Below are positions 13,559 through 51,025 of a stretch of 51,099 nt of DNA, one piece after another. This DNA comes from Gemmatimonadota bacterium (lineage in GTDB: Bacteria; Latescibacterota; UBA2968). Position 1 is the stretch's first letter. Each line of letters begins with the position of its first letter. Below the pieces are notes generated by a model that was not told the DNA's origin, did not search any database, and saw nothing but the letters and a program-made list of their open reading frames with translations. The stretch covers positions 1 through 51,099 of the forward strand of contig VXRD01000129.1 in assembly GCA_009838845.1 (NCBI GenBank), written 5' to 3'. The position numbers and the translations under genes were made by a program.

Positions 13559-16500
13559 ATGAAACCGGACAAATCTTTCGGTCCTTCCGTATCAGACCAA
13601 CCGATAGCGATCATAGGTATGGCCTGCCGATTCCCTGGCGCGCCGGGCATCTCTGCCTTCTGGCGTCTGCTCGAAGCCGGCGGGAATGCCGTCAGCGAAG
13701 GCGTCCCGGGTTCAGGCGTAGGGCGCTGGGGCCTGCTCTTTCCCGACGATGCGGTACAGAGCGAAGGTTGCCGTTTCGGTGCCTTCGTTGACGATATCGA
13801 CCAGTTCGACGACGCCTTCTTCCGGATTTCCCCAGTGGAGGCAGAACTGCTGGATCCACAGCAGCGAATGATGCTGGAGACGAGTTGGGAGGCTCTTGAG
13901 GACGCGGGAATCGATCCGGAGGGATTGAGAGAGAGCCGCACCGGTGTGTACACCGGGATCAGCAACGACGAATACCGAATGCTGGTCGTGGACTCGAGCA
14001 AACCCGCCGAGGCTGCCAGTTGTCTCTACGCCCTCAGCGGCACCAACCTCAACGGCACCAGCGGACGGGTCTCTTTCGTGCTGGGGCTAAGGGGACCGGC
14101 AAAGGCAGTAGATGCCGCGTGCGCGTCATCCATGGTATCAGTCCACGACGCGGTGGCAGACCTGCAGCAGGGCAAAGCGGATCTGGCTATCGCGGGCGGC
14201 GTACAGGCAATCCTGAACGGTCGCATCTACGAACTGCGCGCGGATGCGATGATGCTGTCTCCGGATGGACAGTGCAAAACCTTTGACGCATCCGCGAACG
14301 GTTACGTGCGGGGTGAGGGCTGTGGGGTCGTCATCCTCAAACGGCTCGATGAGGCGGAGGCGGACGGCGATCGGATCTGGGCAGTGATCCGGGGCGCGGC
14401 GGTGAACCACGGCGGAGCCAGTACGGGACTAACCGTGCCGAACACACCCGCGCTGGAAGAAGTGATCGAGACCGCGCTGTCCGACGCGAAAATCCCCGCA
14501 TCGGACGTAGATTACCTGGAGGCGCACGGGACTGGAACGACGGTGGGTGATCCCATCGAGATCAACGCTGTGGCCAATGTCTATGGCAAGGGACGTTCCT
14601 CTGACCAACCCCTTCTCATCGGTTCCGTGAAGACCAATGTCGGCCATCTGGAGTCGGCCGCGGGCGTAGCCGGAGTGATCAAAGCCGCGTTGGTACTGAA
14701 GCGGGGTGTGATTCCAAAACACCTCCATTTCCATAATCCCAACCCGAGTCTCGACTGGGACCGCCTGCCATTGCGGGTGACATCGTCGATGATGGACTTG
14801 CCGCACCGTCCCGATCGACCGCGACTCGCAGGGGTGAACTCCTTCGGGATATCCGGGACGAATGCCCACATCGTAATGGAGGAATACCGTGCCTCAGACG
14901 GTGCATCTACTGCTGTTGGCTCTGCGAAGCCAGTGGTAGTCTCGCTGCCAGCGACCCTTGGGGATCTGCCGCTGCCAGAGCAGGAAGTCCAGCCGCGAAA
15001 GACCCGTCTCCTTCCGCTGTCGGGAAAATCCGATGAGGCACTTCGGGACCTGGGAGGGCGGTACCTTTCATGGCTCGATGAACACGCCGACGAAGAAGGC
15101 GAGGCGATACTTGCAGACATGGCGTGGACAGCGGGCGTGGGGCGGAGCCACTTTGATCACCGCGCGGGTATCGTCTTCCACGACGCGGAATCGCTGCGAG
15201 AGCGCCTCCGTGAACTGGCGAAAACAGATGGGGGCGTGGCGTCGCGAACACCGACCCGGGTGGCGTTTGCCTACACCGGACAGGGAAGCCAATGGGTCGG
15301 CATGGGACAGGTGCTCTACGAGAGCGAGCCAGTGGCGCGGGCAGTTCTGGACCGCTGTGAGGCGGTCCTTCTTCGGGAAAGAGGGGCCTCGCTTTTGGAC
15401 GTGATGTTCGGTCGGTCCGAAGGCGGAGAGGACCTCGGCGACACGGCTTGGGAACAGCCTGCCCTCTACGCGCTGGAGTGCGCACTGACAGCGCTCTGGT
15501 CGAGCGTCGGCATCCGTCCCGATGTGGTCGTCGGACACAGCATTGGAGAACTCGCGGCATCGCAGGCGGCAGGCGTGTTCAGCCTTGAAGACGGGATGCG
15601 GTTTGCCGCCGTGCGCGGCGCGCTGATGTCGCAGATGGAAGAGGGCGGCATGGCCGCGGTCTTCGCACCGGCCGATCGCGTGGCGGTGGAAGTGGAGACG
15701 GTAAACGCAGCCTCCTCTGGCGCCGGGTTGAGCATCTCGGGATACAACGGAAACCATCAGGTGGTCAGCGGCCCGATTGCGGAAATTGAAGAGATCTCGA
15801 AGCGATTCGAACAAGAAAGCATACGGGTCAGGCGGCTGAACACTGCCAAAGCGTTCCACAGCGCCCTTGTTGAACCCATCCTGGACGAACTGGAAGCGTC
15901 CCTCAACGGCGTGGCGATCCAACCGCCCTCCCTTACTGTGGTCAGCAACCTGACGGGCCGAGCCGTAGAACCGGGGCAGTCGCAGGACGGGTCCTACTGG
16001 AGGCAGCATGCCCGGGAGCCAGTGGCATTCGCCCAGGGGGTGAAAACACTATCGGATCTCGGGGTCGATGTGGTGCTGGAAATCGGCCCGCGGTCCGTGC
16101 TGGCTCCAATGGCGGCCTCCGCCTGGCCGGAGTCGCCGCAGACACCGGCAGTGCTGTCGAGCCTTTCCCCGCCGTCGGACAACGCAGAGAAATCGGGAAG
16201 CACTGACGGTTTCGCGGGATCGGTCGCAGAAGCGTACCAGGCGGGACTCCCGATTCGTTTCGCGGGACTCTTCGCAGGGGAGACGCGGCGGCGGATCTCC
16301 CTGCCCAGCTACCCATTCCAGCGCAGACACCACTGGCTTGAGCCACCGAAGCGTCAGCGCCGGAGTTCCGACCATCCGCTACTGGGTGCCCGGCACGAAT
16401 CAGCCCGTGGAGAAATTACCTTTGAGACGGAAGTTTTTCCCTCGGATCCGTCCTATCTGAACGACCACAAAGTGTTTGGCCGGATCGTAGCACCTGGCGC

Positions 16501-19500
16501 GCTCTACGGGGCCATGGCGTGCACGGCGGCGTTCCTCGAAGAGAGTGGATCAGTAGTCGTGGAGGATTTCCAGTTGCACAACGCGATGGTCTTCGAGGAC
16601 GAAGACGAGACGGATGAAGAGGGCAGGAAGATGCAGGTCGTGCTCGACGCCTCTGAACAGGCGTCGTTGCGCGAAGTCCAGATATTCAGCAAGGGAAGTG
16701 AAGGGGAATGGACAGTACACGTGGAAGGTCGCGTGTCGTCAGGTGCCCCTCTGCCGGAAGCGGGTGAGAGGGTTGATCTGGAAAGTCTGAAAGCCGGCCT
16801 CTCTCCAGTAGATGTGGCGGGCTATTACCGCCACAGGGCGAGTACCGGGGTTGATCTCGGTCCATTCTTCCGCACGCTGGGGAAAGTCTGGTCCCGCCCG
16901 GGCGAGGCATTGGGCGAAGTGTCTCTGCCAGAAACTCTGACCAGGCACGGGCTGGACATCCATCCGCTCGTCCTGGACGGTTGCTTTCAGGTCGTGGGCG
17001 CAGCGCGCAACCTGGAGGGAACCGGGGGCGAAACCACATATCTGCCGTTTGGCTGGGAGCGGCTGTGGCTGACGGGACGGCTACCGGATCGGGTCGTCTG
17101 TCACGTGCGCTTGAATGAGGCTTCCCAGGAAACGGACGAACCTCCGGAAGTCCTGAGCGGAGAACTGAACATCTACGATCTGAACGGCGTTCCGCTCGGT
17201 GGCTTGAGCGGGTATACGGTGAAGCGGGCAACACAGGAAGCACTGCTCTCGGCAGTCGAAGGCGTGAAGGACCTCCTGTACGAGGTGGTGTGGCGCGAGC
17301 GCGACCTTTCACCTGGAATAACACCCGCGGACTTCTTCCCGGGTCCGTCAACTGTTGCCGCCCGCTCGCAGTTGTTCTCCGACTATCTGATAGATGCAGG
17401 CGTTGATCCCGAAGGCAGGAACGCTCTGCTCGCGGATCTGGAACGGTGGTCCCGGTCCCGCGCACTCGCGACCCTGAAAGAGCTGGGTTGGCAGCGCAAG
17501 ACGGGCGAGACCGTGGATCCCGAAGACTTGCGGCAACGCCTGCAAGTCACCGAGGAACACAAGCGCCTCTTCCGCCGAATGCTCGAAATGCTCGCCAAAT
17601 CGGGGGTTTTGGAAGAGACGGGCGACGGCTTCGTCGTGGTCATAGGACCCGAAGATCCGCTGCCGGAAGAAATGCCGGGCGATCTTGAGGAATTCGCCTC
17701 CCGGATGACTGACCTGCACCCCCACGGCCTGACCGAGATCGGCCTGTTTCGACGCTCTGGCCGCGCTCTGGCAGAGGTGCTTCGCGGTCGCGAAGATCCG
17801 CTGACCCTTCTGTTCAGCAGCGGAGAACCGACCGCAGCCGATCTGTATCTGAAGGCACCTGTGGCACGAGCGGCGAACAGTATGCTGGGCGATGCGGTGC
17901 GAGCACTCGTGTCCGCATTGCCGGATGACCGGCGCCTCAGAGTCATCGAGGTCGGCGCGGGTACGGGTTCAGCAACCGCGTCCGTATTGCCAGAACTTCC
18001 GGACGGACGATTCGACTATATGTACACGGATATATCCGCGGGCTTCTTTGCGGAAGCCGAGGCTCGGTTCGGAGACGAGGCTATCGAATACCGTCCGCTG
18101 GATATCGAGAAGGATCCCGTGGCACAGGGCTTTGACGCCCATAGTTATGACTTGCTGATCGCGTCCAATGTGCTACACGCCACGCGATACCTTGAAGAAA
18201 CACTCGCACACTGTCGTGACCTTCTTGCGCCATCGGGGCAGTTAATCGCACTCGAGAACCTCAGCGGCCTGGGTTGGATGGATCTGACTTTCGGACAACT
18301 GGATGGCTGGTGGCGATTTGCCGACAGCTACCGCCCGCACCACGCTCTGGCTGAGCCTTCGGTATGGCGACGAGCGCTCGGCAACGTGGGCTTCGAGGAA
18401 GTAGAAGTCCTGGGCGTAGATGAGACCGACGCCACCAGGACGCTGGATAAGGGCGTGATCGTGGCGCAGGGACCGGCGAAGGTGACAGAGCAGGGAGGCG
18501 CGTGGGTTCTGGCGGCAGACCAGGGAAGAGCCGCAGAGGAACTCGCGGCAGAACTCGCGGCGCGAAACCAGACAGTTGTGCTGGCATGTAGCGATGGCCC
18601 GCGGGTAGAGGAAGGCTCTAAAATTATTAAAAAAACCATAGATATGGAGCAACGCGAGGCGTGGGGATCTCTCCTGATGGAGCTACCGGACGACGTGCCA
18701 CTCAGCGGCATTGTACATCTCGCGTCACTGGAAGGGCATGGGACAGAGGCAACGACCGGGGAAATGGCGGCGGATGTACGACGAGTGGGGGCGAGTGCGC
18801 TCGCGCTGGTGCAGGCCGTCGCCGACTTCGATATGACACCAGAAAAGGGCGTGTGGTTTATCACGCGCGGAGCCCAGGTATTGGAGCGAGAGCGCGGTGG
18901 AGAACTCGCCGGCGCAGCACTCTGGGGCTTCGGCAAAGCAGTAGCCCGAGAAGCGGCGCATCTGCAGCCGAGGATGATCGATCTGGACCCCGGCGATATG
19001 GCACCGGCACCCGACCTCGTCAATGAACTCCTGTATCCCGATCCCGAGAATCACATCGCGTACCGCGGGGATGCCCGCCGCGTAGCCCGCCTGATTCGGA
19101 TGGGTTCCGGGGTAGAGCGCCTGACCTTGCCGGAGGACCCAGAATGGGTGCTGGCTCCGGATCCGGACGGCGTGTTCGAAAGACCGTATGTCCAGCCACT
19201 ACCGGCACCTTCTCTCGAACCGCGCGAAGTTCGCGTCGCAGTCGAGGCCTCCGGGCTCAACTTCTGGGATGTGTTTCGTTCACTCGGCTTTATTGAGGAG
19301 GGCAATCTGGGCAGGGAGATGTGCGGCTACATTCTCGAGGTGGGTTCCGATGTCTCGACCATTTCCGTCGGCGACCATATAGTTGGATTGGGATTTGGGG
19401 CGTTCGGGGCGCAAATGGTCACGCGGGAAGAATTGGTAGCACCCGCGCCATCGGACTTCTCCGTCACTGGACTTGCCACAGTGCCGAGCGCGTTCGTATC

Positions 19501-22500
19501 CGCCGCGCTGTCTTTCGAACTCTCGGGACTGGAGGCCGGCGATCGGGTACTGATTCACGCTGGTTCGGGCGGCGTGGGATTGGCGGCCATTCAGTTGGTG
19601 CAAGCCGCGGGCGCAGAGGTCTTTGCCACCGCGAGCGCGCCGAAGCAGGCCTATCTCCGATCACTGGGCGTGGAACACATATTCGACAGCCGCCAGACAG
19701 CATTCGGGAAAGAGATCCTCGAAGCTACAAATGGAGAAGGCATCGATGTGGTGCTGAACAGCCTCACAGGAGAGGGCTTCATCGACGCGAGCCTGTCCTG
19801 CCTCAAGCACGGCGGTCGGTTCGTGGAATTGGCCAGGCGGGACATCTTGAGCGAGGAAGAGATGGCGGCTGTACGTCCGGATGTGGCCTACGACATCCTG
19901 GAATTAGATGTTCTGAAAAAAACCGATCCGGCGTGGGTGGGAAGAGTCCTGCGGGACATCATGGCGCGCCTTTCGTCGGGAGAACTGAAAACAATCACCC
20001 ACAGCAGGTGGCCGCTCGCCGAAGCCGGAGCCGCGCTGAGCTTCATGCGCGCCGCCCGGCACATAGGAAAGATCGTCGTAACGACGCCACCGATCCTGAA
20101 GGACAAGTTGCGACAGGACCGCACCTATTTGGTAACAGGTGGTCTGGGTGGGATCGGATGCGCCGTAGCAGACTGGCTGGCGGATCGCGGTGCGGGCGCA
20201 ATAGCACTAAACGGGCGCCGGGCACCGGACCCCGAGGCTGAGGAGGTGATCCGCAGGCTGCGAGAACGCGGCGTGACAGTGCAGGTAGAGATCGCAGACG
20301 TGACAGATGCCGCCGCAATAGATGAGATGATGGCGCGGATAGATGAGACGCTACCGCCGCTCGGAGGCGTGATCCACAGCGTGGGCGTGCTGTCGGACGG
20401 CGCGCTGACCAACCAGAGTTGGGAGCGATTCGAAACCGTGCTCTGGCCAAAGGTACTGGGCGCATGGCATCTGCATCGGGCGACTTTGGATCGCGACCTG
20501 GATATGTTTGTCCTCTTCTCGAGCCGGGTTGGCGTCATGGGCAATCCGGGCCAGGCGAACCACGCCTCAGCCAATGCATTTCTGGATCAACTCGCCGGTC
20601 ACCGCCGCGCGATGGGGCTACCTGGACAGGCCATAGCCTGGGGAGCGTGGTCGGAGATCGGCGAAGCAGCGGAACAGCGGGAGCGGATTGACCAACAGCG
20701 GTCAGCGCTTGGCGGCCGCTGGTTTACCCCGCAACAGGGTATCCGGGCATTCGATCAACTGGTGCGTCAGGACGCCACGACTTCCGTGGTGATGTCGATG
20801 GACTGGTCAGTGTTCGAAGAGGCGGTCGAAGATCGTCCTCCCTTCCTGGAGGACTTGCTGTCCGCCGATGCGGACGACGAAGCCGACGCCTCCGCCTCGT
20901 CAAAGGACCTGCTTTCCCAACTGCGAGAGGCACCTGCAGCGGCACCCGAGGACCTGCTTGTATCCTTCCTGCAGCAGGAGGTACAGGCAGTGCTGAGGTT
21001 GCCGACAGCGCCGGAACCCACAGTGGGATTTTTCGATTTGGGGATGGACTCGCTGATGGCGGTAGAGTTGCGGAATCGTCTGAACCGGGCATTTGCCGAT
21101 GAGTACGTGGTCCCCAACACCGTGGTATTTGACTACCCGGACATCGCCAGTCTCGCCCGCCATCTGGTCGAGGAACTCGGCGAAGTCAGCGATGCGCCCG
21201 CCCCTCAGCCTCAGGTGCAACCCGAACCAGAACCGCAGCCGACAGTGCAGCGCGAGGATGACGGTATTGCGATCGTGGGTATGGCGTGCCACTTCCCCGG
21301 CGCTCCGGATCTTTCCACCTTCTGGCACCTGCTCGAAGCAGGTGCGGACGCAGTGACCGACGGACGCCAGGATCCCGGTTCATGGAACAATCTCGCCAAA
21401 GACCTTCCACCCCAGTACGCAGCTTATCGCCGGGGTGGATTTGTGGAGGGCATTGATCAATTTGACGCGAGATTCTTTCGGATTTCGCCGATTGAGGCGC
21501 GCATTATGGATCCGCGGCAACGCATGATGCTGGAGACGACCTGGCAAGCGATTGAGGATGCGGGGATGGATCCAGACGAATTGAGAGGTAGCCGCACCGG
21601 GCTATATGCCGGCATCGCCACCAGCGAATACCGGGACCTGATGACAGCCAGCGACTACGGCATCAGTTATCTGGGCACTGCCGCGAGCATGACGGTCGGG
21701 CGAATTGCTTTCCTCCTTGGTCTGGAGGGACCGACGATACCGGTGGAACTCAACTGCGCGTCGTCACTGGTCGCGGTACACCAGGCAGTGATGGGTTTGC
21801 GGCAGGGCGAAGTAGATATGGCTCTGGTTGGAGGGACACACGCAGTTTTATCACCTGATTTAACCAGAGAAATGGCGGACCTGGGCATGTTGTCACGAGA
21901 GGGGAAGGGCAGGCCCTTCGATGCCTCTGCAGACGGCTTCACGCGCGGCGAGGGCTGTGGGATAGTCGTCCTCAAGCGGCTGAGCGAGGCAGAAGCCGAC
22001 GGCGACCGCATCTGGGGCGTGATCCGCGGGTCTGCGGTCAACCAGAACGGAGCCAGCGCGGGACCCACCGTGCCAAATGGACCGGCACAGGAGCGGGTGA
22101 TCGAAGAAGCGCTGTCGCGAGCGGGCGTTGCACCATCGGACGTAGATTATCTGGAAGCCCACGGAGGAGGGTCGGAATTGGGCGATCCGATCGAAGTTCA
22201 GGCAGCGGCTGCTGTTTACGGCAAGGGCCGCGAAGCAGACCGCCCGCTCTTGATCGGCTCCGTGAAGACCAATATCGGCCACCTGGAGCCAGCTGCCGGA
22301 ATTGCGGCTCTAATCAAGGCAGTCCTGGCGATGAAGCGGGAAAAGATACCCAAGCACCTGAACTTTGAGAATCCGAGTCCGCATATAGACTGGGATCGGT
22401 TGCCGGTACAGGTGACTTCCGAATTGACGGACTGGCCGAGCCATCCCGACCGACCGCCGCGGGCCGGGGTAAGTGCCTTCGGTATATCGGGAACGAATGC

Positions 22501-23617
22501 CCATGTTGTCGTAGAGGGATATGACAGCCCGGATACAACGCCTGTGGGTTCAGCACAACCCGTTTCCCTATCCGTTGTGGAACTCCCAGACGAGGAAGAA
22601 GCGTTCGCTCCGCGCCAGACCCGGCTCCTGCCCTTGTCGGGAAAATCCGATGAAGCTCTCCGGGATCTGACAGAACGCTATTTGTCGTGGCTCGACGAGC
22701 TTGCCTCCGAAGATGTGGACCTGCTTGCCGACATGGCGTGGACAGCGGGTGTGGGACGCAGCCATTTCGACCACCGCGCAGGCATCGTATTCCAGGACGT
22801 CGAATCCTTGCGAGAAAAACTACAGGCACTCGCAGAGACAGGTGAAAGGCAAGAACCGCGTACCGCGACAAAAATCGCCTTTGCGTACACCGGACAGGGC
22901 AGCCAGTGGATCGGCATGGGGAAAGACCTCTACGAAAGCGAGCCGGTAGTCCGAGCCGTTCTGGATCGCTGCGACAAAGTAATTCGGGAAGAGCGGGACA
23001 CCTCGTTGCTGGACGCGATGTTCGGCCAGAACGGTGATCTATCTGACCTGCCTGCCATCTACGCACTGGAGTCCGCGCTTACGGCACTGTGGTCAAGCAT
23101 GGGGATTCAGCCCAGCGTGGTGGTCGGGCACGGTATAGGGGAAATTGCAGCGGCACAGGCGGCGGGCGTCTTTAGCCTGGAGGATGGCTTGCGGGTTGCG
23201 CTGGAATGGGATACGGACAATCTGGAAGCCACCCTCACAGACGTCACAATCGCATCGCCATCTCTGGTCCTTGTGAGCAGTGTGACAGGGGGCGTCGAAG
23301 TCCTCGACGCGGCGTATTGGCGTCGGCAAGCACAGGAACCGGCGGTATTGGACAAATGCGCGAAGAAGCTTGTGAATCTGGGGGTCGATGTACTCATCGA
23401 GATTGGCCCGAACGCGGCGCCGGGACCGATAGAAGGCGACGCGAATCCACCCGTTGTGCTGTCGAGTCTGGAAGACGGCGGTTTTGTACAAGCAGTAGCA
23501 AAAGCGTATGAAGCGGGCCTCTCGGTATCATTTCCCGGACTATTTGCGGGAGAAACGCGCCGCCGCATCTCGCTGCCGAGCTATCCATTCCAGCACCAGC
23601 ACTACTGGATTCAATAG
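13559..23617 (+). CDS. Type I polyketide synthase, reducing C-methylating module plus trailing KS and dead AT
   Basis: This encodes 3352 residues; GGAGG eight nt before ATG 13559 fixes the start. Domain order: KS1 (15-440, Cys188/His323/His363); malonyl-type AT1 (567-870, GHSIG Ser661, KAFH 764-767); DH (940-1225, His970 in HKVFGRIVAP, Asp1140); C-methyltransferase (about 1250-1640, VIEVGAGTG 1462-1470); structural psi-KR (1640-1845); ER (1855-2180, HAGSGGVG 2000-2007); KR (2187-2370, TGGLGGIG 2193-2200, but His2335 in place of the catalytic Tyr); ACP (2464-2540, Ser2498); Pro/Glu linker; KS2 (2567-2988, Cys2733/His2868/His2908); AT2 (3105-3352) with Gly3192 in place of the nucleophile Ser and about 85-90 residues missing, including the second catalytic His. 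No terminal ACP or thioesterase. The first module should make alpha-methylated, largely reduced chains, as in methyl-branched fatty-acid or lipid PKSs. The gene looks more GC-rich than its neighbours. A free ACP follows. Confidence 0.95.
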   Translation: MKPDKSFGPSVSDQPIAIIGMACRFPGAPGISAFWRLLEAGGNAVSEGVPGSGVGRWGLLFPDDAVQSEGCRFGAFVDDIDQFDDAFFRISPVEAELLDPQQRMMLETSWEALEDAGIDPEGLRESRTGVYTGISNDEYRMLVVDSSKPAEAASCLYALSGTNLNGTSGRVSFVLGLRGPAKAVDAACASSMVSVHDAVADLQQGKADLAIAGGVQAILNGRIYELRADAMMLSPDGQCKTFDASANGYVRGEGCGVVILKRLDEAEADGDRIWAVIRGAAVNHGGASTGLTVPNTPALEEVIETALSDAKIPASDVDYLEAHGTGTTVGDPIEINAVANVYGKGRSSDQPLLIGSVKTNVGHLESAAGVAGVIKAALVLKRGVIPKHLHFHNPNPSLDWDRLPLRVTSSMMDLPHRPDRPRLAGVNSFGISGTNAHIVMEEYRASDGASTAVGSAKPVVVSLPATLGDLPLPEQEVQPRKTRLLPLSGKSDEALRDLGGRYLSWLDEHADEEGEAILADMAWTAGVGRSHFDHRAGIVFHDAESLRERLRELAKTDGGVASRTPTRVAFAYTGQGSQWVGMGQVLYESEPVARAVLDRCEAVLLRERGASLLDVMFGRSEGGEDLGDTAWEQPALYALECALTALWSSVGIRPDVVVGHSIGELAASQAAGVFSLEDGMRFAAVRGALMSQMEEGGMAAVFAPADRVAVEVETVNAASSGAGLSISGYNGNHQVVSGPIAEIEEISKRFEQESIRVRRLNTAKAFHSALVEPILDELEASLNGVAIQPPSLTVVSNLTGRAVEPGQSQDGSYWRQHAREPVAFAQGVKTLSDLGVDVVLEIGPRSVLAPMAASAWPESPQTPAVLSSLSPPSDNAEKSGSTDGFAGSVAEAYQAGLPIRFAGLFAGETRRRISLPSYPFQRRHHWLEPPKRQRRSSDHPLLGARHESARGEITFETEVFPSDPSYLNDHKVFGRIVAPGALYGAMACTAAFLEESGSVVVEDFQLHNAMVFEDEDETDEEGRKMQVVLDASEQASLREVQIFSKGSEGEWTVHVEGRVSSGAPLPEAGERVDLESLKAGLSPVDVAGYYRHRASTGVDLGPFFRTLGKVWSRPGEALGEVSLPETLTRHGLDIHPLVLDGCFQVVGAARNLEGTGGETTYLPFGWERLWLTGRLPDRVVCHVRLNEASQETDEPPEVLSGELNIYDLNGVPLGGLSGYTVKRATQEALLSAVEGVKDLLYEVVWRERDLSPGITPADFFPGPSTVAARSQLFSDYLIDAGVDPEGRNALLADLERWSRSRALATLKELGWQRKTGETVDPEDLRQRLQVTEEHKRLFRRMLEMLAKSGVLEETGDGFVVVIGPEDPLPEEMPGDLEEFASRMTDLHPHGLTEIGLFRRSGRALAEVLRGREDPLTLLFSSGEPTAADLYLKAPVARAANSMLGDAVRALVSALPDDRRLRVIEVGAGTGSATASVLPELPDGRFDYMYTDISAGFFAEAEARFGDEAIEYRPLDIEKDPVAQGFDAHSYDLLIASNVLHATRYLEETLAHCRDLLAPSGQLIALENLSGLGWMDLTFGQLDGWWRFADSYRPHHALAEPSVWRRALGNVGFEEVEVLGVDETDATRTLDKGVIVAQGPAKVTEQGGAWVLAADQGRAAEELAAELAARNQTVVLACSDGPRVEEGSKIIKKTIDMEQREAWGSLLMELPDDVPLSGIVHLASLEGHGTEATTGEMAADVRRVGASALALVQAVADFDMTPEKGVWFITRGAQVLERERGGELAGAALWGFGKAVAREAAHLQPRMIDLDPGDMAPAPDLVNELLYPDPENHIAYRGDARRVARLIRMGSGVERLTLPEDPEWVLAPDPDGVFERPYVQPLPAPSLEPREVRVAVEASGLNFWDVFRSLGFIEEGNLGREMCGYILEVGSDVSTISVGDHIVGLGFGAFGAQMVTREELVAPAPSDFSVTGLATVPSAFVSAALSFELSGLEAGDRVLIHAGSGGVGLAAIQLVQAAGAEVFATASAPKQAYLRSLGVEHIFDSRQTAFGKEILEATNGEGIDVVLNSLTGEGFIDASLSCLKHGGRFVELARRDILSEEEMAAVRPDVAYDILELDVLKKTDPAWVGRVLRDIMARLSSGELKTITHSRWPLAEAGAALSFMRAARHIGKIVVTTPPILKDKLRQDRTYLVTGGLGGIGCAVADWLADRGAGAIALNGRRAPDPEAEEVIRRLRERGVTVQVEIADVTDAAAIDEMMARIDETLPPLGGVIHSVGVLSDGALTNQSWERFETVLWPKVLGAWHLHRATLDRDLDMFVLFSSRVGVMGNPGQANHASANAFLDQLAGHRRAMGLPGQAIAWGAWSEIGEAAEQRERIDQQRSALGGRWFTPQQGIRAFDQLVRQDATTSVVMSMDWSVFEEAVEDRPPFLEDLLSADADDEADASASSKDLLSQLREAPAAAPEDLLVSFLQQEVQAVLRLPTAPEPTVGFFDLGMDSLMAVELRNRLNRAFADEYVVPNTVVFDYPDIASLARHLVEELGEVSDAPAPQPQVQPEPEPQPTVQREDDGIAIVGMACHFPGAPDLSTFWHLLEAGADAVTDGRQDPGSWNNLAKDLPPQYAAYRRGGFVEGIDQFDARFFRISPIEARIMDPRQRMMLETTWQAIEDAGMDPDELRGSRTGLYAGIATSEYRDLMTASDYGISYLGTAASMTVGRIAFLLGLEGPTIPVELNCASSLVAVHQAVMGLRQGEVDMALVGGTHAVLSPDLTREMADLGMLSREGKGRPFDASADGFTRGEGCGIVVLKRLSEAEADGDRIWGVIRGSAVNQNGASAGPTVPNGPAQERVIEEALSRAGVAPSDVDYLEAHGGGSELGDPIEVQAAAAVYGKGREADRPLLIGSVKTNIGHLEPAAGIAALIKAVLAMKREKIPKHLNFENPSPHIDWDRLPVQVTSELTDWPSHPDRPPRAGVSAFGISGTNAHVVVEGYDSPDTTPVGSAQPVSLSVVELPDEEEAFAPRQTRLLPLSGKSDEALRDLTERYLSWLDELASEDVDLLADMAWTAGVGRSHFDHRAGIVFQDVESLREKLQALAETGERQEPRTATKIAFAYTGQGSQWIGMGKDLYESEPVVRAVLDRCDKVIREERDTSLLDAMFGQNGDLSDLPAIYALESALTALWSSMGIQPSVVVGHGIGEIAAAQAAGVFSLEDGLRVALEWDTDNLEATLTDVTIASPSLVLVSSVTGGVEVLDAAYWRRQAQEPAVLDKCAKKLVNLGVDVLIEIGPNAAPGPIEGDANPPVVLSSLEDGGFVQAVAKAYEAGLSVSFPGLFAGETRRRISLPSYPFQHQHYWIQ

Positions 23618-40426: not shown

Positions 40427-41041
40427 CTATGATTTTGTCAGCTTTCGAAAGTGAATTACCCGCTCCATCGCAGTAAAATTTCCCAACAGAGCAATTGCCC
40501 AGACCACAACGATCAGACCAATATCCCCAATCAAAGGAACGATCACCCCGCCAGCGCCAATGGCAATAACGCGCTCGGGCCGCTGCATAAATCCAACCTT
40601 GCACTCCGCCCCAAGCCCCTCAATGCGCGCGCGCACATAACTCACCATCAAAGATCCTGCCAGTGCAAAAAAGACCGCCGCGCTTGTCCAGAGATCATCC
40701 GCCCGTATAAAACTGATCGCAATGCCAAACCAGATGAAAATTTCGGAATATCGGTCAACAGTGGAATCGAGAAGCGCACCAAATTTGGACTCTGTCTTGC
40801 CCTTGCGCGCCACCTGCCCGTCGAGAAAATCAAAAACACCCGCGACAAGCACCGTCAACCCCGCCCACATATACAATAATGGTGCCGAAGTAGGCGAGGC
40901 AAAGCCGAAGAGCACTGCGGCACCTATATTGAAAACAAACCCGATCATGGTCAACAAATCGGGCGTAAAGCGCTTTTCTACGAGAAATTCTGTAGATGGT
41001 CCCAAAATTTCGGCGACATCATCTTTAACTTTTTCAATCAC
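40427..41041 (-). CDS. CDP-alcohol phosphatidyltransferase family protein
   Basis: This encodes 204 residues from a GTG start reading MIEKVKDDVAEILGPS. A TTG at 41128 would add 29 residues that do not look like protein, so this start is tentative. The diagnostic motif DGx2ARx8Gx3Dx3D is complete: FLDGQVARKGKTESKFG then ALLDSTVDR. About five to six TM segments are visible (LTMIGFVFNIGAAVLFGFA, LLYMWAGLTVLVAGVFDFL, IGAGGVIVPLIGDIGLIVV). It would transfer a phosphoalcohol from a CDP-activated lipid or alcohol at the inner membrane; phosphatidylglycerol-phosphate or inositol-phosphate synthase are both possible. Upstream lies the DnaA-box cluster. Confidence 0.8.
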   Translation of the reverse strand: MIEKVKDDVAEILGPSTEFLVEKRFTPDLLTMIGFVFNIGAAVLFGFASPTSAPLLYMWAGLTVLVAGVFDFLDGQVARKGKTESKFGALLDSTVDRYSEIFIWFGIAISFIRADDLWTSAAVFFALAGSLMVSYVRARIEGLGAECKVGFMQRPERVIAIGAGGVIVPLIGDIGLIVVVWAIALLGNFTAMERVIHFRKLTKS

Positions 41042-41184
41042 TGTAAACCCACAGAGAGTGAAGTTTTTGGTTGAATTTTCTAATGTTAGAACAAATCCAA
41101 ATATAGGCCAATTCTGTAGGTGTTGCAAGCGAAATATCCCTTCAAAACAGGTGAAAAAACAGCCTGAACAGCCTGCATTTCAGT

Positions 41185-41311
41185 GGTGGAAAACCCGAGA
41201 GATAATGTGGAAAAGTATGTGGATAACTTTGGGCAAGTCGCATAAATTTAGTACTTTTATTCAATAAAATCAACTACTTAAATTGTTGATAATATTATCC
41301 ACTTTTCCACA
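41185..41311. other. Candidate replication origin (oriC): DnaA-box cluster with AT-rich core
   Basis: There is one perfect DnaA box TGTGGATAA (41218-41226, complement of TTATCCACA). Two TTTTCCACA-type boxes lie at 41206-41214 (complement) and 41303-41311, and TTATCCACT lies at 41295-41303. Weaker one-mismatch boxes lie at 41185-41193 and 41284-41292. Left boxes point one way and the two right boxes the other, bracketing a strongly AT-rich stretch 41241-41298 that could be the unwinding element. It occupies the gap between the CDP-alcohol transferase and the cyclophilin genes. No such boxes are seen upstream of dnaA. Confidence 0.7.
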
Positions 41312-41354: not shown

Positions 41355-42038
41355 CTATCGAAACACATCTATGCGCTTGATCACCACGGGTTTTAGAGGT
41401 CGATCCCCCGGCGCAGTTTCGACCATTGCAATATTGTTAACCACATCCATTCCCTTTGTCACTTCTCCAAAAGCAGTATATTGATTGTCCAAATTGGGCG
41501 AAGACCCATGCATAATAAAAAATTGTGACCCGGCACCAGCCGACACATCCGAAACGCGAGCCATGGAAAGAATTCCCGGTACATGGTTTGTATCATTAAA
41601 TTCATGAGGGATATGCACGAGCGGTCCCCCCATCCCATCATCAGACGGATCATCGTCCTTTGAATTGGGATCGCCCCCTTGAATCATGAAATTTCTAATT
41701 ACGCGATGAAACTTGGTATTATCGTAAAACCCGCTTTCTGCTCTGGTGATAAAAGCCAAACAATGAACAGGTGCTTTTTCGGGATGGAACTTCAATTCGA
41801 TATCGCCCATATTTGTCGCGATACGCGCCGTCACACCCCGAATCTGATTTACCAGAAATAGCATTCGGCCGCCGATCTCACCGGCTCGCTTAATCTGGTT
41901 TTGCGCCTTGCTCAAGGAGCTTTTCAACGACCGATTCTCATTGTTCAACTTCTCATTGGCTTGTTTTAAATCTTCCATTCCGCTACCTCCACAGCTCGCT
42001 ATCGAGAGACATAATCCCAAAAAAACAAATCGTTTCAT
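41355..42038 (-). CDS. Cyclophilin-type peptidyl-prolyl isomerase, predicted lipoprotein
   Basis: This encodes 227 residues from MKRFVFLGLCLS; AGGAG eight nt upstream fits this ATG better than one two codons earlier. The lipobox IASC directs lipid attachment at the Cys, then a short coiled coil (LKQANEKLNNENRSLKSSLSKAQNQI) precedes the cyclophilin domain. Active-site motifs are FHRVIRNFMIQGGDP, GSQFFIM and FGEVTKGMDVVNNI. It would catalyse prolyl cis-trans isomerisation in the periplasm while anchored to a membrane. The DnaA-box cluster lies immediately downstream. Confidence 0.92.
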   Translation of the reverse strand: MKRFVFLGLCLSIASCGGSGMEDLKQANEKLNNENRSLKSSLSKAQNQIKRAGEIGGRMLFLVNQIRGVTARIATNMGDIELKFHPEKAPVHCLAFITRAESGFYDNTKFHRVIRNFMIQGGDPNSKDDDPSDDGMGGPLVHIPHEFNDTNHVPGILSMARVSDVSAGAGSQFFIMHGSSPNLDNQYTAFGEVTKGMDVVNNIAMVETAPGDRPLKPVVIKRIDVFR

Positions 42039-42230
42039 AGACATTTCTCCTTACAAAAATAATACCCCCCAAATCTCCCTTGACAGTGGTTCTTCTCCAC
42101 GCTTTATTGTTCGCGCTATGATGATACAGGCGCAACACAACGCCGGTCAATCTCATTGCGCCTATCGCGGGGCTGAAACACCGCCGCGCAGAACAACATA
42201 AACCTCCACATTCCCAAGGACAACATCATT

Positions 42231-43498: not shown

Positions 43499-43941
43499 GG
43501 GCGAATTCCTGAAAAAGGCAGACGGAGTCCGAAAAATAGCAATACTTAAACGAAAAAAAGGAGGAGAAGGTGGGGAAATGGGGAGGATAAGCCTGACGAT
43601 CTGGGGAGAAAGGGGAATCAGAGCAAGATCGGTTTACCCTCCCCACCCAATAAAGAGAGACTTGAATCCAGGAGAAATAGAATGTAACTGAATCTCGTTT
43701 CTCTTTATTTTTCAGGACGTTAAGTCCTTAATACACACAAACAAGTGTGTGTGTATTGCGTTCTGTGTGGGGAGTTCCAGAATGCAATTGCCTAAATATA
43801 CACTCTCAAGTTTGTGTTGTCAAGAGTAAATATATTCATTTAACCTATCTGTTTCTCAAGGATTTAGCTTGCCACACGGCACTTTTCAATTCATATTAGG
43901 GCATCAAATTTTTGAACGCGACTGACCATTGGGAGAGGTGT
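43499..43941. other. Intergenic region with hairpins upstream of XRE regulator
   Basis: These 443 bp separate divergent genes. AATACACACA (43730-43739) pairs perfectly over 10 bp with TGTGTGTATT (43748-43757). Just before it AGGAC (43714-43718) pairs with GTCCT (43724-43728). Both lie about 190-230 bp before the XRE start and could be operators or an mRNA hairpin. No gene is supported here. Confidence 0.5.
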
Positions 43942-44540: not shown

Positions 44541-44596
44541 TCTGGTTATATGATAAATAATTCGTTAATATAATCTTCTATTTACTAACTTATGTT

Positions 44597-44722
44597 GAAC
44601 TGGCCTGAGAGGCGACCAGTTGTACCCCGTTTCACGTGGAACGATGTATGAAGGCGAGTGAGCGGTGTACAACTGCGCCAGCAGTTCAATCGCGCATGAC
44701 TGGTCGTATCCCAGAGCAGTTC
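44597..44722. repeat. Cluster of related palindromes downstream of rsmG
   Basis: There are three related elements. 44597-44624 starts GAACTGG and ends CCAGTTGTA (arms AACTGG/CCAGTT). 44665-44687 contains AACTGC GCCA GCAGTT. 44698-44722 is the reverse of a GAACTGCTCTGGGATACGAC then CAGT form and overlaps the rsmG stop by two bases. The first abuts a parS site at a three-nt spacing. Related copies are at 45460-45487, 45494-45516 and 39649-39673. Confidence 0.75.
44628..44643 (+). promoter_or_regulatory. parS-like ParB binding site
   Basis: CGTTTCACGTGGAACG matches the bacterial parS consensus TGTTTCACGTGNAACA at all but the two outermost bases and is itself palindromic except one position. It lies between the XRE and rsmG genes, in the origin-proximal position typical of parS. 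It is preceded, three nt away, by a palindrome. Confidence 0.85.
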
Positions 44723-45359
44723 AACATCTTTTAAGAAAGACAAAGGAGCGCTTTCGTCGTGAAAATGGTAATCTCAAAGTGGTTTCAGCGGCATAGATGT
44801 GGTCTGGAACACCGTTCGCAAACTCACTGAGAGAACCTGGACCTTTCATTGCAATAAGTACACCGGGGGGGGCGAGAAGAGGTTCAACCCAATTCCAGAG
44901 TTGAGGAAGCCTTGCAACTGCGCGCGCTGTACCAATTAGAAATTTGCCCGAGAACGAGGAATCTCCAACAAGTGTCTCAGCACGACTTCTAATAGCGAAG
45001 GCGTCTTGAAGGTCGAGCGTTGTGATAGTTTCCTTGAGAAAAAGGGTTTTCATGCGGGCGGGTTCGAGGAGATAAACTTCGAGGTCGGATCTCATAATCT
45101 TGATCACAATACCCGGCAGACCTGCCCCGGAACCCAAATCAAGGAGAGGGCCATCTATTGGAAGGTGCGGTACCAGCGAAAGACAATCGAGAATATGACG
45201 TTCCCATATAAAATTGCGGTCATTGCGGGAGACCAATCGAACGCGAGCCGACCAATCGGTAAGCAAATCGACGTATTGAACGAGCAACGCGACCTGTTCA
45301 GGGGAAAGTGAAAGATCAAAGGACTTCTCCGCAAGCTCAATTGCTTCATCGGGTTGCAT
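44721..45359 (-). CDS. rsmG: 16S rRNA (guanine-527-N7) methyltransferase RsmG
   Basis: This encodes 212 residues from MQPDEAIELAEKSF; AAAGG upstream of this ATG is preferred to an upstream start whose extra residues are not typical. SAM-binding motif LLDLGSGAGLPGIVIKI, then EPARMKTLFLKETI and RAVARLPQLWNWVEPLLAPPGVLIAMKG, are diagnostic of RsmG/GidB. It methylates G527 of 16S rRNA. It follows mnmE on the same strand, separated by 161 bp carrying the second parS site and palindromes. Confidence 0.93.
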   Translation of the reverse strand: MQPDEAIELAEKSFDLSLSPEQVALLVQYVDLLTDWSARVRLVSRNDRNFIWERHILDCLSLVPHLPIDGPLLDLGSGAGLPGIVIKIMRSDLEVYLLEPARMKTLFLKETITTLDLQDAFAIRSRAETLVGDSSFSGKFLIGTARAVARLPQLWNWVEPLLAPPGVLIAMKGPGSLSEFANGVPDHIYAAETTLRLPFSRRKRSFVFLKRC

Positions 45360-45440
45360 TGGATATACCTTTAGAAGGGGGAGTAAGAGGTAATACGCAA
45401 GAGGAGAGTACACAGTTCAACGCACCAGCCCCTCTTTGCA

Positions 45441-45456
45441 TGTTTCACGTGGAACG
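45441..45456 (-). promoter_or_regulatory. Second parS-like ParB binding site
   Basis: TGTTTCACGTGGAACG matches the parS consensus at 15 of 16 positions. It lies between rsmG and mnmE, 813 bp from the first site. On the minus strand it is preceded, again by exactly three nt, by a palindrome closely related to the one beside the first parS. Confidence 0.88.
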
Positions 45457-45459
45457 TTT

Positions 45460-45516
45460 TACAACTGATCGTATCTCAGACCAGTTCAACGGGGTACAAC
45501 TGGTTCAGACCAGTTC
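45460..45516. repeat. Palindromes between mnmE and parS
   Basis: 45460-45487 is, in reverse complement, 24 of 28 identical to the element at 44597-44624. 45494-45516 contains AACTGG TTCAGA CCAGTT (45498-45515), five nt after the mnmE stop on the transcribed strand. The latter could act as an mRNA 3' hairpin, but no T-tract follows. Confidence 0.75.
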
Positions 45517-45520
45517 GACA

Positions 45521-49116: not shown

Positions 49117-49244
49117 CAAACCACCTCGTATCTACAAAAATTTCAATTATCTATATCGACAAAGATTTTGGAATATAGAGGTGCATACCTCCTTTGTCAA
49201 GCTATTTCCCTTTGACTGGAGCCTCCTGTGACTATACTACTATA

Positions 49245-49273
49245 TATGGTGTACATTTTTTTTGTACACTATA
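49245..49273. promoter_or_regulatory. Operator-like inverted repeat upstream of dnaA
   Basis: TATGGTGTACA (49245-49255), seven T residues, TGTACACTATA (49263-49273): 11-bp arms with one mismatch. The left core GTGTACA/TGTACAC is perfect. It lies immediately before the TTGACT element at 49276, a typical position for a regulator binding site. Confidence 0.5.
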
Positions 49274-49275
49274 TC

Positions 49276-49304
49276 TTGACTGTTTACTATTATTTTACTA
49301 TTTT
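49276..49304 (+). promoter_or_regulatory. dnaA: Candidate dnaA promoter
   Basis: TTGACT (49276-49281), 17 nt, TATTTT (49299-49304), right after the inverted repeat. A second candidate has a perfect TTGACA (49343-49348), 17 nt and TAGTTT (49366-49371). Either would give a long dnaA leader. Pattern match only. Confidence 0.4.
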
Positions 49305-49642
49305 TCAAATGTTTACTAATATTTTCCTTTGAGAAAACCCTCTTGACATCGCTCATTTCATTGCTTAGTTTTCGATTAGCTTTCAGAATCTTTTGAAATC
49401 CACTTTTGAAGTGGATTCCCCCACCGTGGTCTGCTGTTAAAAATAACCGAAGTATTTCGATTTCAAAGTTTCAGAATACTTTCAATTTTCCTTCCTCCAA
49501 TTGAGAGTCCCCCATTTCCTGAAGCGAAATCAGGCCTCCCTTATATTCGGATTTCTCAGACAACGGTTTCCAGCACGTAAAGTATCCTATTGATATTCCC
49601 TTAGTTGGCGCGTGTTTGCCAGCCATAGACGGATATTGCCCT

Positions 49643-51025
49643 ATGGATGAACGCTCTTCTGACTTATGGAACCGGTGTCTCTACGCCATCCAGGAAAAAA
49701 TACAGGATCAGAGTTTTGAAACCTGGTTCGCTCCAATCAAGGCGCGGCAGTTTACCTCCGAAGAAGTTATTCTGGTGGTACCCGAGAGGATTTATGCCGA
49801 TTGGTTAGAACAAAATTACATCGGGTTGATCAAAACGACCATCCAGGAAGTCTTCACATGGAATCCACGCATAACTTTTGCGGTTGGTGATACTCACCAA
49901 CAAATGCCATCCCATGTAAAAGATGCTCCCGGATTCATGCAGGGAGCACCTCTCGATTCTGTATCTACTGCGCCATCTATCCATCCAGAACCTGTCCAAC
50001 CAGTATTTCCCCTCAATCCACGCTACAGGTTTGATAATTTTGTTGTTGGTGAAAGCAATGAAGTGTCGTTTTCTGCGGCAAAAGCCACAGCAGAGTCGCC
50101 TGGACAAACGGCTTTTAATCCGCTTGTCCTTTATGGCGGCGTTGGATTGGGAAAAACCCACCTGCTCCAGGCCATTGGTGCACACTGTATCGAAATGGGA
50201 ACAGGTCAACGCGTGGTTTATGTTACTGCACAACAGTTTCTCACAGATTATTTAGAAGGAATCAATCGCGGAACAATCTCTAATTTCCATCAAACCTATC
50301 GCCAAGCGGATGTGTTGCTGGTGGATGATATCCAGTATTATGTGAAAACAGAAGGTTGCCAAAGAGAGTTTATCCATACATTTAATGCCCTATTTCAAGC
50401 AGATAAGCAGATTATCATCAGTTCTGATCGCCCACCATCTCACCTCAAGGGATTTGAGGATCGGTTGATTTCTCGATTTCAATGGGGTTTAGTTACAAAT
50501 ATCGAAGCACCTGATCTGTCCACGCGGGTGGCTATTTTAATGCAAAAAGCAGAAGAGATGGGTGTTTTATTGTCCCACGAAATTGCCAGTTTCTTAGCTG
50601 AGCAGATCGATACCAACATACGCGAACTTGAAGGCGCATTAAAACGCCTGGTCGCTTATACCAAATTACAACGCTATCCACTCACGATTGAAACAGCGCG
50701 AAAGACCCTGTTAAGCCCGCCTCAAAAGACCAAACCGACTGTTACTATTGAAAGCATTCAAAAAGCAGCAGCCCACTTTTTTGAAATACCTTTAGATAAA
50801 CTGGTTGGTACAACGCGGAAGCAGGATGTGACAACAGCCCGTCATGTGAGTATGTATTTGAGCAAATCTCTTACAGGTGCTCCTCTCAAGACGATTGGTT
50901 TGCAATTTGGAAACCGCGATCACAGTACAGTTATTCACGCATGCCGGAGAGTAGAAGACAAGATATCAGCGGATCCAGAATTTGAACATCTTGTGAGTGA
51001 ACTACAAGATCATATCGTAAGTTAA
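49643..51025 (+). CDS. dnaA: Chromosomal replication initiator protein DnaA
   Basis: This encodes 460 residues from MDERSSDLWNRCLYAIQEKI; ATG 49643 is preferred to an upstream TTG because domain I usually starts here. Domain I (FETWFAPIKARQ) runs to about 85, then a flexible linker. The AAA+ domain III begins YRFDNFVVGESNEVSFSAA, with Walker A GGVGLGKTH, Walker B VLLVDDIQYY, sensor ISSDRPP and the arginine finger region EDRLISRFQWGL. Domain IV carries the DNA-binding signature GNRDHSTVIHACRRVE. It binds DnaA boxes, unwinds oriC and loads the helicase. Its likely target in this window is the cluster at 41185-41311. Only the GG-to-GN change in GGRDHST is atypical, and mild. Confidence 0.97.
   Translation: MDERSSDLWNRCLYAIQEKIQDQSFETWFAPIKARQFTSEEVILVVPERIYADWLEQNYIGLIKTTIQEVFTWNPRITFAVGDTHQQMPSHVKDAPGFMQGAPLDSVSTAPSIHPEPVQPVFPLNPRYRFDNFVVGESNEVSFSAAKATAESPGQTAFNPLVLYGGVGLGKTHLLQAIGAHCIEMGTGQRVVYVTAQQFLTDYLEGINRGTISNFHQTYRQADVLLVDDIQYYVKTEGCQREFIHTFNALFQADKQIIISSDRPPSHLKGFEDRLISRFQWGLVTNIEAPDLSTRVAILMQKAEEMGVLLSHEIASFLAEQIDTNIRELEGALKRLVAYTKLQRYPLTIETARKTLLSPPQKTKPTVTIESIQKAAAHFFEIPLDKLVGTTRKQDVTTARHVSMYLSKSLTGAPLKTIGLQFGNRDHSTVIHACRRVEDKISADPEFEHLVSELQDHIVS

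What the first reader, a model, noticed from the sequence alone, without database searches (positions are those of the whole stretch)
41185..41311. Origin candidate displaced from dnaA
Six DnaA-box-like 9-mers, one perfect TTATCCACA and two TTTTCCACA, sit within 127 bp with opposite orientations on the two sides of a very AT-rich core. The gap upstream of dnaA has none. Together with parS sites 3-4 kb away this places oriC between a CDP-alcohol transferase and a cyclophilin gene, an arrangement I do not know as a standard one.
Basis: partly seen in the sequence, partly recalled or inferred. Interest (0 to 1): 0.75.

Follow-up and report, generated by a model that had tools for sequence, protein, structure and literature searches.

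The report
DnaA-box cluster near, not at, oriC
In an uncultured marine bacterium (Candidatus Latescibacterota), a real and conserved cluster of binding sites for the replication starter protein DnaA lies about 10 kb from the likely replication origin, which sits in the ordinary place just behind the dnaA gene beyond the end of this contig, so the cluster looks like an accessory control site.

Summary
In detail: six DnaA-box-like 9-mers lie in 127 bp around the least stable 56-bp stretch of the window, far beyond chance; five are conserved in the genus. The window is Candidatus Latescibacterota. A 2-6-box cluster sits upstream of the same CDP-alcohol transferase gene in 32 of 33 class members with that gap intact. 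The rpmH-dnaA gap has none, and two parS sites lie 3-4 kb away.

There, relatives carry another conserved cluster (23 of 23), the strongest in the 200-800 kb scanned, with a box-spacer-DnaA-trio unwinding module, directly before dnaN outside the genus. This genome has it too, at the start of contig C155. G011 lost the finding's cluster but kept that one. GC skew fits an origin in the neighbourhood but cannot separate the two.

Best reading: the canonical oriC lies 3' of dnaA. The finding is an accessory, origin-proximal DnaA-box cluster (titration, looping or regulation), like the Bacillus subtilis trmE site. In the genus a consensus IHF site lies between its box groups, as in E. coli datA. 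No function was tested. A split or dual origin remains possible (about 0.13).

The parts
41185..41193 (-). DnaA-box-like 9-mer 1, TTTTCCACC (weak; poorly conserved)
   Evidence: genus identity 0.79 against 0.90-1.00 for the others
41206..41214 (-). DnaA box 2, TTTTCCACA
   Evidence: genus identity 0.90
41218..41226 (-). DnaA box 3, TTATCCACA (perfect)
   Evidence: genus identity 0.98
41227..41283 (.). AT-rich core between the two box groups (57 bp, 74% AT)
   Evidence: core more AT-rich than the rest of the gap in 23 of 24 genomes
41268..41280 (+). IHF/HU consensus site AATCAACTACTTA (WATCAANNNNTTR)
   Evidence: exact in all 8 genus members tested; P 0.013 in shuffled cores; alignment; consensus from PMC10380432
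41284..41292 (-). DnaA box 4, TTATCAACA
   Evidence: genus identity 0.92
41295..41303 (+). DnaA box 5, TTATCCACT
   Evidence: genus identity 0.98
41303..41311 (+). DnaA box 6, TTTTCCACA
   Evidence: genus identity 1.00
41100..41128 (-). Probable sigma-70-type promoter of the CDP-alcohol transferase gene: TTGCAA, 17 bp, TATATT
   Evidence: Read from the sequence; genus identity 0.92 over 41105-41142
40427..41044 (-). CDP-alcohol phosphatidyltransferase, nearest to phosphatidylinositol-phosphate synthases; conserved left neighbour of the cluster; probable GTG start at 41042-41044
   Evidence: PF01066; NF052561/NF040950/NF045883 matches below their cut-offs
41355..42044 (-). Cyclophilin-type peptidyl-prolyl isomerase; right neighbour only in some families
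   Evidence: PF00160; absent from the block in f4
44629..44642 (+). parS site GTTTCACGTGGAAC
45442..45455 (+). parS site GTTTCACGTGGAAC
49117..49615 (.). rpmH-dnaA divergent promoter gap: AT-rich and conserved, no DnaA box
49616..51025 (+). dnaA; the contig ends 74 bp later. The probable canonical oriC begins within about 150 bp of the gene's end, beyond the window (start of G000:C155)
   Evidence: TIGR00362; DNA-binding domain like 1j1v; C155 by synteny and 95% identity, boxes

Best explanation
The feature is an accessory, origin-proximal DnaA-box cluster and not the unwinding origin. The probable oriC lies directly 3' of dnaA, about 10 kb to the right (off the contig, at the start of contig C155). 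Shown: the boxes, their conservation in the class at a fixed place upstream of the CDP-alcohol transferase gene, and another conserved box cluster with a DnaA-trio module behind dnaA. Inferred: DnaA binds both; unwinding and helicase loading happen behind dnaA; at the finding, DnaA bound to the two box groups, with the DNA between them bent by an IHF/HU protein in this genus, forms a complex that holds or inactivates DnaA, or loops to oriC, soon after the region is replicated. It may also tune the promoter of the neighbouring lipid-synthesis gene.
For: Box cluster real and present in 32 of 33 class members with this gap intact. CDP-alcohol transferase homologues outside the synteny block have no cluster. 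Boxes behind dnaA in 23 of 23 relatives and in this genome. That gap is the strongest cluster in all five long stretches scanned and the finding's gap the second: scores 128/66, 84/68, 113/66, 87/40, 83/44. Conserved module behind dnaA: TTATCCACA, 10 bp, CTA YTG TTG AT in 6 of 7 genus members (G008: TTATTCACA and TTG), and tandem boxes plus trio-like repeats in 10 of 10 f4 members, a full CTACTAG in 4; own genome TTATCCACA-TCGGGCAAAT-CTATTGTTGATA. The finding's cluster has no such module better than shuffles in this genome (p 0.33). G011 lost the finding's cluster and kept the dnaA one. Outgroup classes f5 and f6 have clusters beside dnaA. Step fits in G037 and mostly in G061 put the skew switch at +6 kb, i.e. 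at the dnaA-dnaN gap. Precedent: B. subtilis DnaA binds upstream of trmE/mnmE as well as at oriC, all within 7 kb (PMC4447404). IHF-like site between box groups, as in datA (PMC5835720; PMC10380432).
Against: In this genome the two clusters score alike (86.0 and 85.0 per 200 bp). In the genus third-position skew changes sign between the FAH-hydrolase gene and rsmG, and G008's fit (+2 to +5 kb) lies nearer the finding than dnaA's 3' side. The core is the least stable DNA in the window, which an origin would have. The IHF-like site is conserved in the genus only. The trio score is home-made and beats shuffles in some genomes only.
Confidence: 0.72

Rival explanations
1. The finding is the active oriC, displaced from dnaA; the boxes behind dnaA serve dnaA or dnaN regulation.
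For: AT-rich core, conserved boxes, parS 3-4 kb away; the genus skew change and the G008 step fit lie on this side of rsmG.
Against: A more box-rich cluster with a conserved unwinding module sits at the canonical place; G011 lacks the finding's cluster; f4 step fits prefer dnaA-dnaN by 1.5-3.3 log units.
Confidence: 0.1
2. A split origin: the finding is the distal lobe of one bipartite oriC whose unwinding lobe is behind dnaA. DnaA bridges 5-10 kb by looping.
For: Both clusters are conserved together across the class while the rpmH-dnaA gap, where B. subtilis has its other lobe, is empty. In B. subtilis a distal box works at several distances and orientations (PMC6669920).
Against: Distances of 5-10 kb are far beyond the lobes known to me; the spacing changes twofold between families; G011 has only the one behind dnaA.
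Confidence: 0.13
3. The boxes regulate transcription of the neighbouring CDP-alcohol transferase operon (and tmk) by DnaA, with no role in replication.
For: The cluster stays with this gene while its other neighbour changes; a conserved promoter lies 57-78 bp away. DnaA appears to repress trmE-noc in B. subtilis (PMC4447404).
Against: The same gene outside the origin region carries no boxes, so the link is to the place; up to 6 boxes in two groups is more than a simple operator.
Confidence: 0.12

Closest known systems
Bacillus subtilis origin-proximal DnaA-box clusters, in particular the one upstream of trmE (mnmE)
   Same: Strong DnaA-box cluster a few kb from dnaA, on the far side of the rpmH-rnpA-yidC genes, in addition to oriC (PMC4447404). 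Removing six clusters outside oriC gives early initiation (PMC5295017).
   Different: Here it lies upstream of a CDP-alcohol transferase gene beyond rsmG, not upstream of mnmE; B. subtilis also has boxes in the rpmH-dnaA gap, absent here. DnaA binding is not shown here.
E. coli datA
   Same: Noncoding site in the origin half of the chromosome with several DnaA boxes and one IHF site between them (PMC5835720; PMC10380432).
   Different: datA is hundreds of kb from oriC (own knowledge), not 10 kb; no sequence homology was tested; the IHF-like site here is genus-specific; ATP hydrolysis is untested.
Bacillus subtilis bipartite oriC (incA/incB and incC)
   Same: Box clusters on both sides of dnaA, the unwinding one at dnaA-dnaN with DnaA-trios (PMC6669920; PMC5295017).
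   Different: The other cluster is 5-10 kb away, not next to dnaA.
E. coli oriC, the usual example of an origin away from dnaA
   Different: Here a canonical candidate next to dnaA exists.

Membership tests
Chromosomal origin oriC | Cluster of DnaA boxes beyond chance | tested here: met
   score 76.7 against at most 36.9 in 200 simulated windows
Chromosomal origin oriC | AT-rich unwinding element beside the boxes | tested here: met
   Least stable 56-mer of the window; in f4 relatives the core is only slightly AT-richer than its surroundings
Chromosomal origin oriC | DnaA-box, spacer and DnaA-trio module (predicted in 85% of origins, PMC8287927) | tested here: not met
   At the finding the best module is a one-mismatch box with TTG ATT TTA TTG, p 0.33 against shuffles; behind dnaA a conserved CTA-type module
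Chromosomal origin oriC | Strand skew switches at the site | tested here: inconclusive
   A local switch exists but its position differs by genome: +2 to +5 kb in G008, +6 kb in most fits of G037, +6 or +15.5 kb in G061, tens of kb in G006/G007
Chromosomal origin oriC | Retained in all relatives with the same gene order | tested here: not met
   32 of 33; G011 has none even at two mismatches, while its dnaA 3' cluster remains
Chromosomal origin oriC | Replication starts there | not testable with these tools
   Needs coverage or fork mapping
Origin-proximal DnaA-box cluster (B. subtilis type) | Multiple DnaA boxes outside oriC and near it | tested here: met
   Second strongest cluster in all five long stretches, 6-12 kb from the strongest
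Origin-proximal DnaA-box cluster (B. subtilis type) | Binds DnaA and restrains initiation | not testable with these tools
   Only inferred; this DnaA has the RDHSTVIHAC recognition segment aligned to the E. coli domain solved with a DnaA box (1j1v)
datA | IHF site between essential DnaA boxes | tested here: met
   Exact WATCAANNNNTTR between the box groups in all 8 genus members tested; not in the f4 members tested
datA | IHF-dependent hydrolysis of DnaA-ATP | not testable with these tools
   HU/IHF-family genes exist, no activity data

The most novel reading that the evidence does not exclude
This class starts replication from a split or dual origin: an unwinding site behind dnaA and a second conserved DnaA-box lobe with its own AT-rich core 5-10 kb away, with parS between them, so that long-range DnaA bridging or two alternative start sites control initiation.
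Probability: 0.13. Interest if true: 0.65.

Novelty: new member of a known kind. Interest (0 to 1): 0.33.

Why it matters
It corrects an origin call that a contig end made plausible: the box-rich gap behind dnaA was cut off. It gives an origin map for a phylum for which the paper library held no origin study (one search found only two unrelated papers), and a conserved pair of DnaA-box clusters around the parS-dnaA block that could show whether origin-proximal titration or control sites are widespread outside Firmicutes and Gammaproteobacteria.

Tried and rejected
GC skew as arbiter: whole-chromosome sampling of G008 is noisy; local fits disagree between genomes, so skew supports the neighbourhood only. 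Origin in the rpmH-dnaA gap: conserved and AT-rich but no boxes in 23 of 24 genomes; its conservation fits divergent promoters and an inverted repeat. Cluster as a general feature of this lipid gene's promoter: rejected, homologues elsewhere lack it. DnaA-trios inside the core: four weak trios 10 bp from box 4, not better than shuffles, and the conserved letters are better explained by an IHF site. Third clusters in G006-G008 as a shared further site: not alike in sequence. RNA element in 40.0-51.1 kb: none in Rfam. The B. subtilis cluster-deletion paper itself (PMC3245932) is not held; it is cited through PMC5295017.

Full report
WHAT WAS CHECKED. By a weight-matrix sum the place scores 76.7 in 150 bp; 200 simulated 51-kb sequences never exceeded 36.9 and the next best place in the window scored 20.1. 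The 56-mer starting at 41242 is the least stable in the window. In 11 genus members the identity is 0.90-1.00 in boxes 2-6 against 0.55-0.75 in most flanking stretches; box 1 is weaker (0.79), and the neighbouring promoter and part of the core are conserved too.

WHERE IT IS. Record titles of the nearest relatives name Candidatus Latescibacterota; by length and position the complete chromosomes OX638329, OY282377 and OX638377 are G007, G008 and G037. Gene order is S41 protease, tmk, CDP-alcohol transferase, [cluster], cyclophilin, FAH hydrolase, small HTH gene, rsmG, mnmE, yidC, rnpA, rpmH, dnaA. The transferase is nearest to phosphatidylinositol-phosphate synthases, all below the curated cut-offs, so 'pgsA' in my notes is only a label. 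In family f4 of the same class the cyclophilin, FAH and HTH genes are absent from the block and the cluster lies directly between the transferase and rsmG; thus the right-hand neighbour named in the finding is lineage-specific.

CONSERVATION OF THE CLUSTER. Two to five boxes at one mismatch occur in this gap in 24 of 24 genomes with the block assembled, and two or more in eight others (G004, G005, G010; G014, G019, G022, G061, G062; G022 has six). Number, order and orientation turn over; two groups around a 33-118 bp spacer are the common pattern. G011 has a complete gap of about 0.2 kb with no box even at two mismatches. Homologues of the transferase outside the block, including other Latescibacterota classes, have no cluster. 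parS occurs at this block and hardly elsewhere in six genomes.

THE TURN. The contig ends 74 bp after dnaA. In every relative with that DNA the gap behind dnaA is rich in boxes (2-9 at one mismatch, 23 of 23). Long stretches of five genomes (200-800 kb each) give the same ranking, dnaA's 3' gap first and the finding's gap second, with scores 128/66 (G007), 84/68 (G008), 113/66 (G006), 87/40 (G037) and 83/44 (G061). In six of seven genus members the gap holds TTATCCACA, a 10-bp spacer and CTA YTG TTG AT; G008 is one base off in the box and has TTG as first trio. In ten of ten f4 members tandem boxes are followed by trio-like repeats, with a full CTACTAG in four (G024, G025, G029, G032), and in f4 dnaN follows. 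This is the layout described as the basal unwinding system: DnaA-box, spacer of about 10-13 bp, trios with consensus 3'-GAT-5' (PMC8287927). My search score found it better than shuffles in some genomes and not in others, so the argument rests on the conserved alignment more than on the score.

THE OWN GENOME. A query from G001 finds the missing piece at the first base of contig C155, 95% identical, starting about 147 bp after the dnaA stop by synteny. It carries TTTTCCACA three times and TTATCCACA-TCGGGCAAAT-CTATTGTTGATA. The adjacency of C129 and C155 is inferred from the relatives, not assembled. By box score the two places are equal in this genome (86.0 and 85.0). dnaN lies 19 kb into C155, so in this genus dnaN has been parted from dnaA.

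GC SKEW. Near the block the skew changes sign in G008 (cumulative minimum 4.4 kb right of the transferase start). Third-position skew in eight genus members is negative up to the FAH gene and positive from rsmG to yidC. A step model with a gene-strand term puts the switch at +2 to +5 kb in G008, at +6 kb in three of four fits of G037, at +6 or +15.5 kb in G061, and tens of kb off in G006 and G007; the difference in log-likelihood between the two clusters is at most 3.3. The genus pattern favours neither cluster cleanly, f4 favours dnaA's 3' gap weakly. Skew therefore supports an origin in this neighbourhood and does not decide.

MECHANISM. Shown: sites, conservation, a DnaA with the standard box-reading segment (RDHSTVIHAC), HU/IHF-family genes, and in all eight genus members tested an exact IHF consensus between the two box groups (chance 0.013 in shuffled cores of this genome). 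Inferred: DnaA binds here; because the region is copied soon after initiation, doubling of these sites would draw or inactivate DnaA and delay the next start, or, less likely, the place acts as a distal lobe of oriC by looping. A role in transcription of the transferase operon is possible; the promoter read at 41100-41128 is conserved.

COMPARISON. Closest is B. subtilis, where DnaA binds in vitro upstream of rpmH/dnaA, at dnaA-dnaN and upstream of trmE within a 7-kb stretch (PMC4447404), and where removal of six clusters outside oriC gave early initiation (PMC5295017). datA shares the box-IHF-box plan. The membership test for oriC fails on the trio module and on retention in all relatives; for an origin-proximal DnaA-box cluster the sequence features are met and the activity is untested.

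VERDICT. A true and conserved feature, read as the origin because the window stopped at dnaA. Ordinary in kind, new in its phylum.

Noticed in passing
parS 44629, 45442; parB G000:C170:7684, G007:C1:4543232, G008:C1:335412, G037:C1:3695396: The ParB_N-domain gene lies 1.3-2.4 Mb away from parS and the origin block in the three complete chromosomes, unlike the usual parAB next to the origin.
   Followed up: partly
44595-44724 and 45413-45518: Ten copies of CAGTT(C/G)(A/T/G)A in both orientations crowd around the two parS sites (0.18 per kb elsewhere). A similar stretch with GTACAACTG is inserted in the cluster's gap in G002, G005 and G006.
   Followed up: partly
49244-49274: Inverted repeat ATATGGTGTACA-N7-TGTACACTATAT in the rpmH-dnaA gap, nearly invariant in eight genus members (G008 deviates); an operator of unknown owner.
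   Followed up: no
43730-43757: Inverted repeat AATACACACAAACAAGTGTGTGTGTATT upstream of the HTH gene at 43912, perhaps its own operator.
   Followed up: no
G000:C155:19487-19852: dnaN is about 20 kb from dnaA in this genome, 2.7 kb in G008, and close behind dnaA in the other families examined.
   Followed up: partly
13559-23617: A 3352-residue polyketide synthase with two KS/AT sets, DH, methyltransferase, ER, KR and carrier domains, GC 0.58-0.63 against about 0.48-0.52 on its left.
   Followed up: partly
L273-L287 (dnaA loci of other Latescibacterota classes): Classes f5 and f6 have box clusters next to dnaA, f5 also in the rpmH-dnaA gap; f7 and f10 show almost none at this stringency, so their boxes or origin positions may differ.
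   Followed up: no
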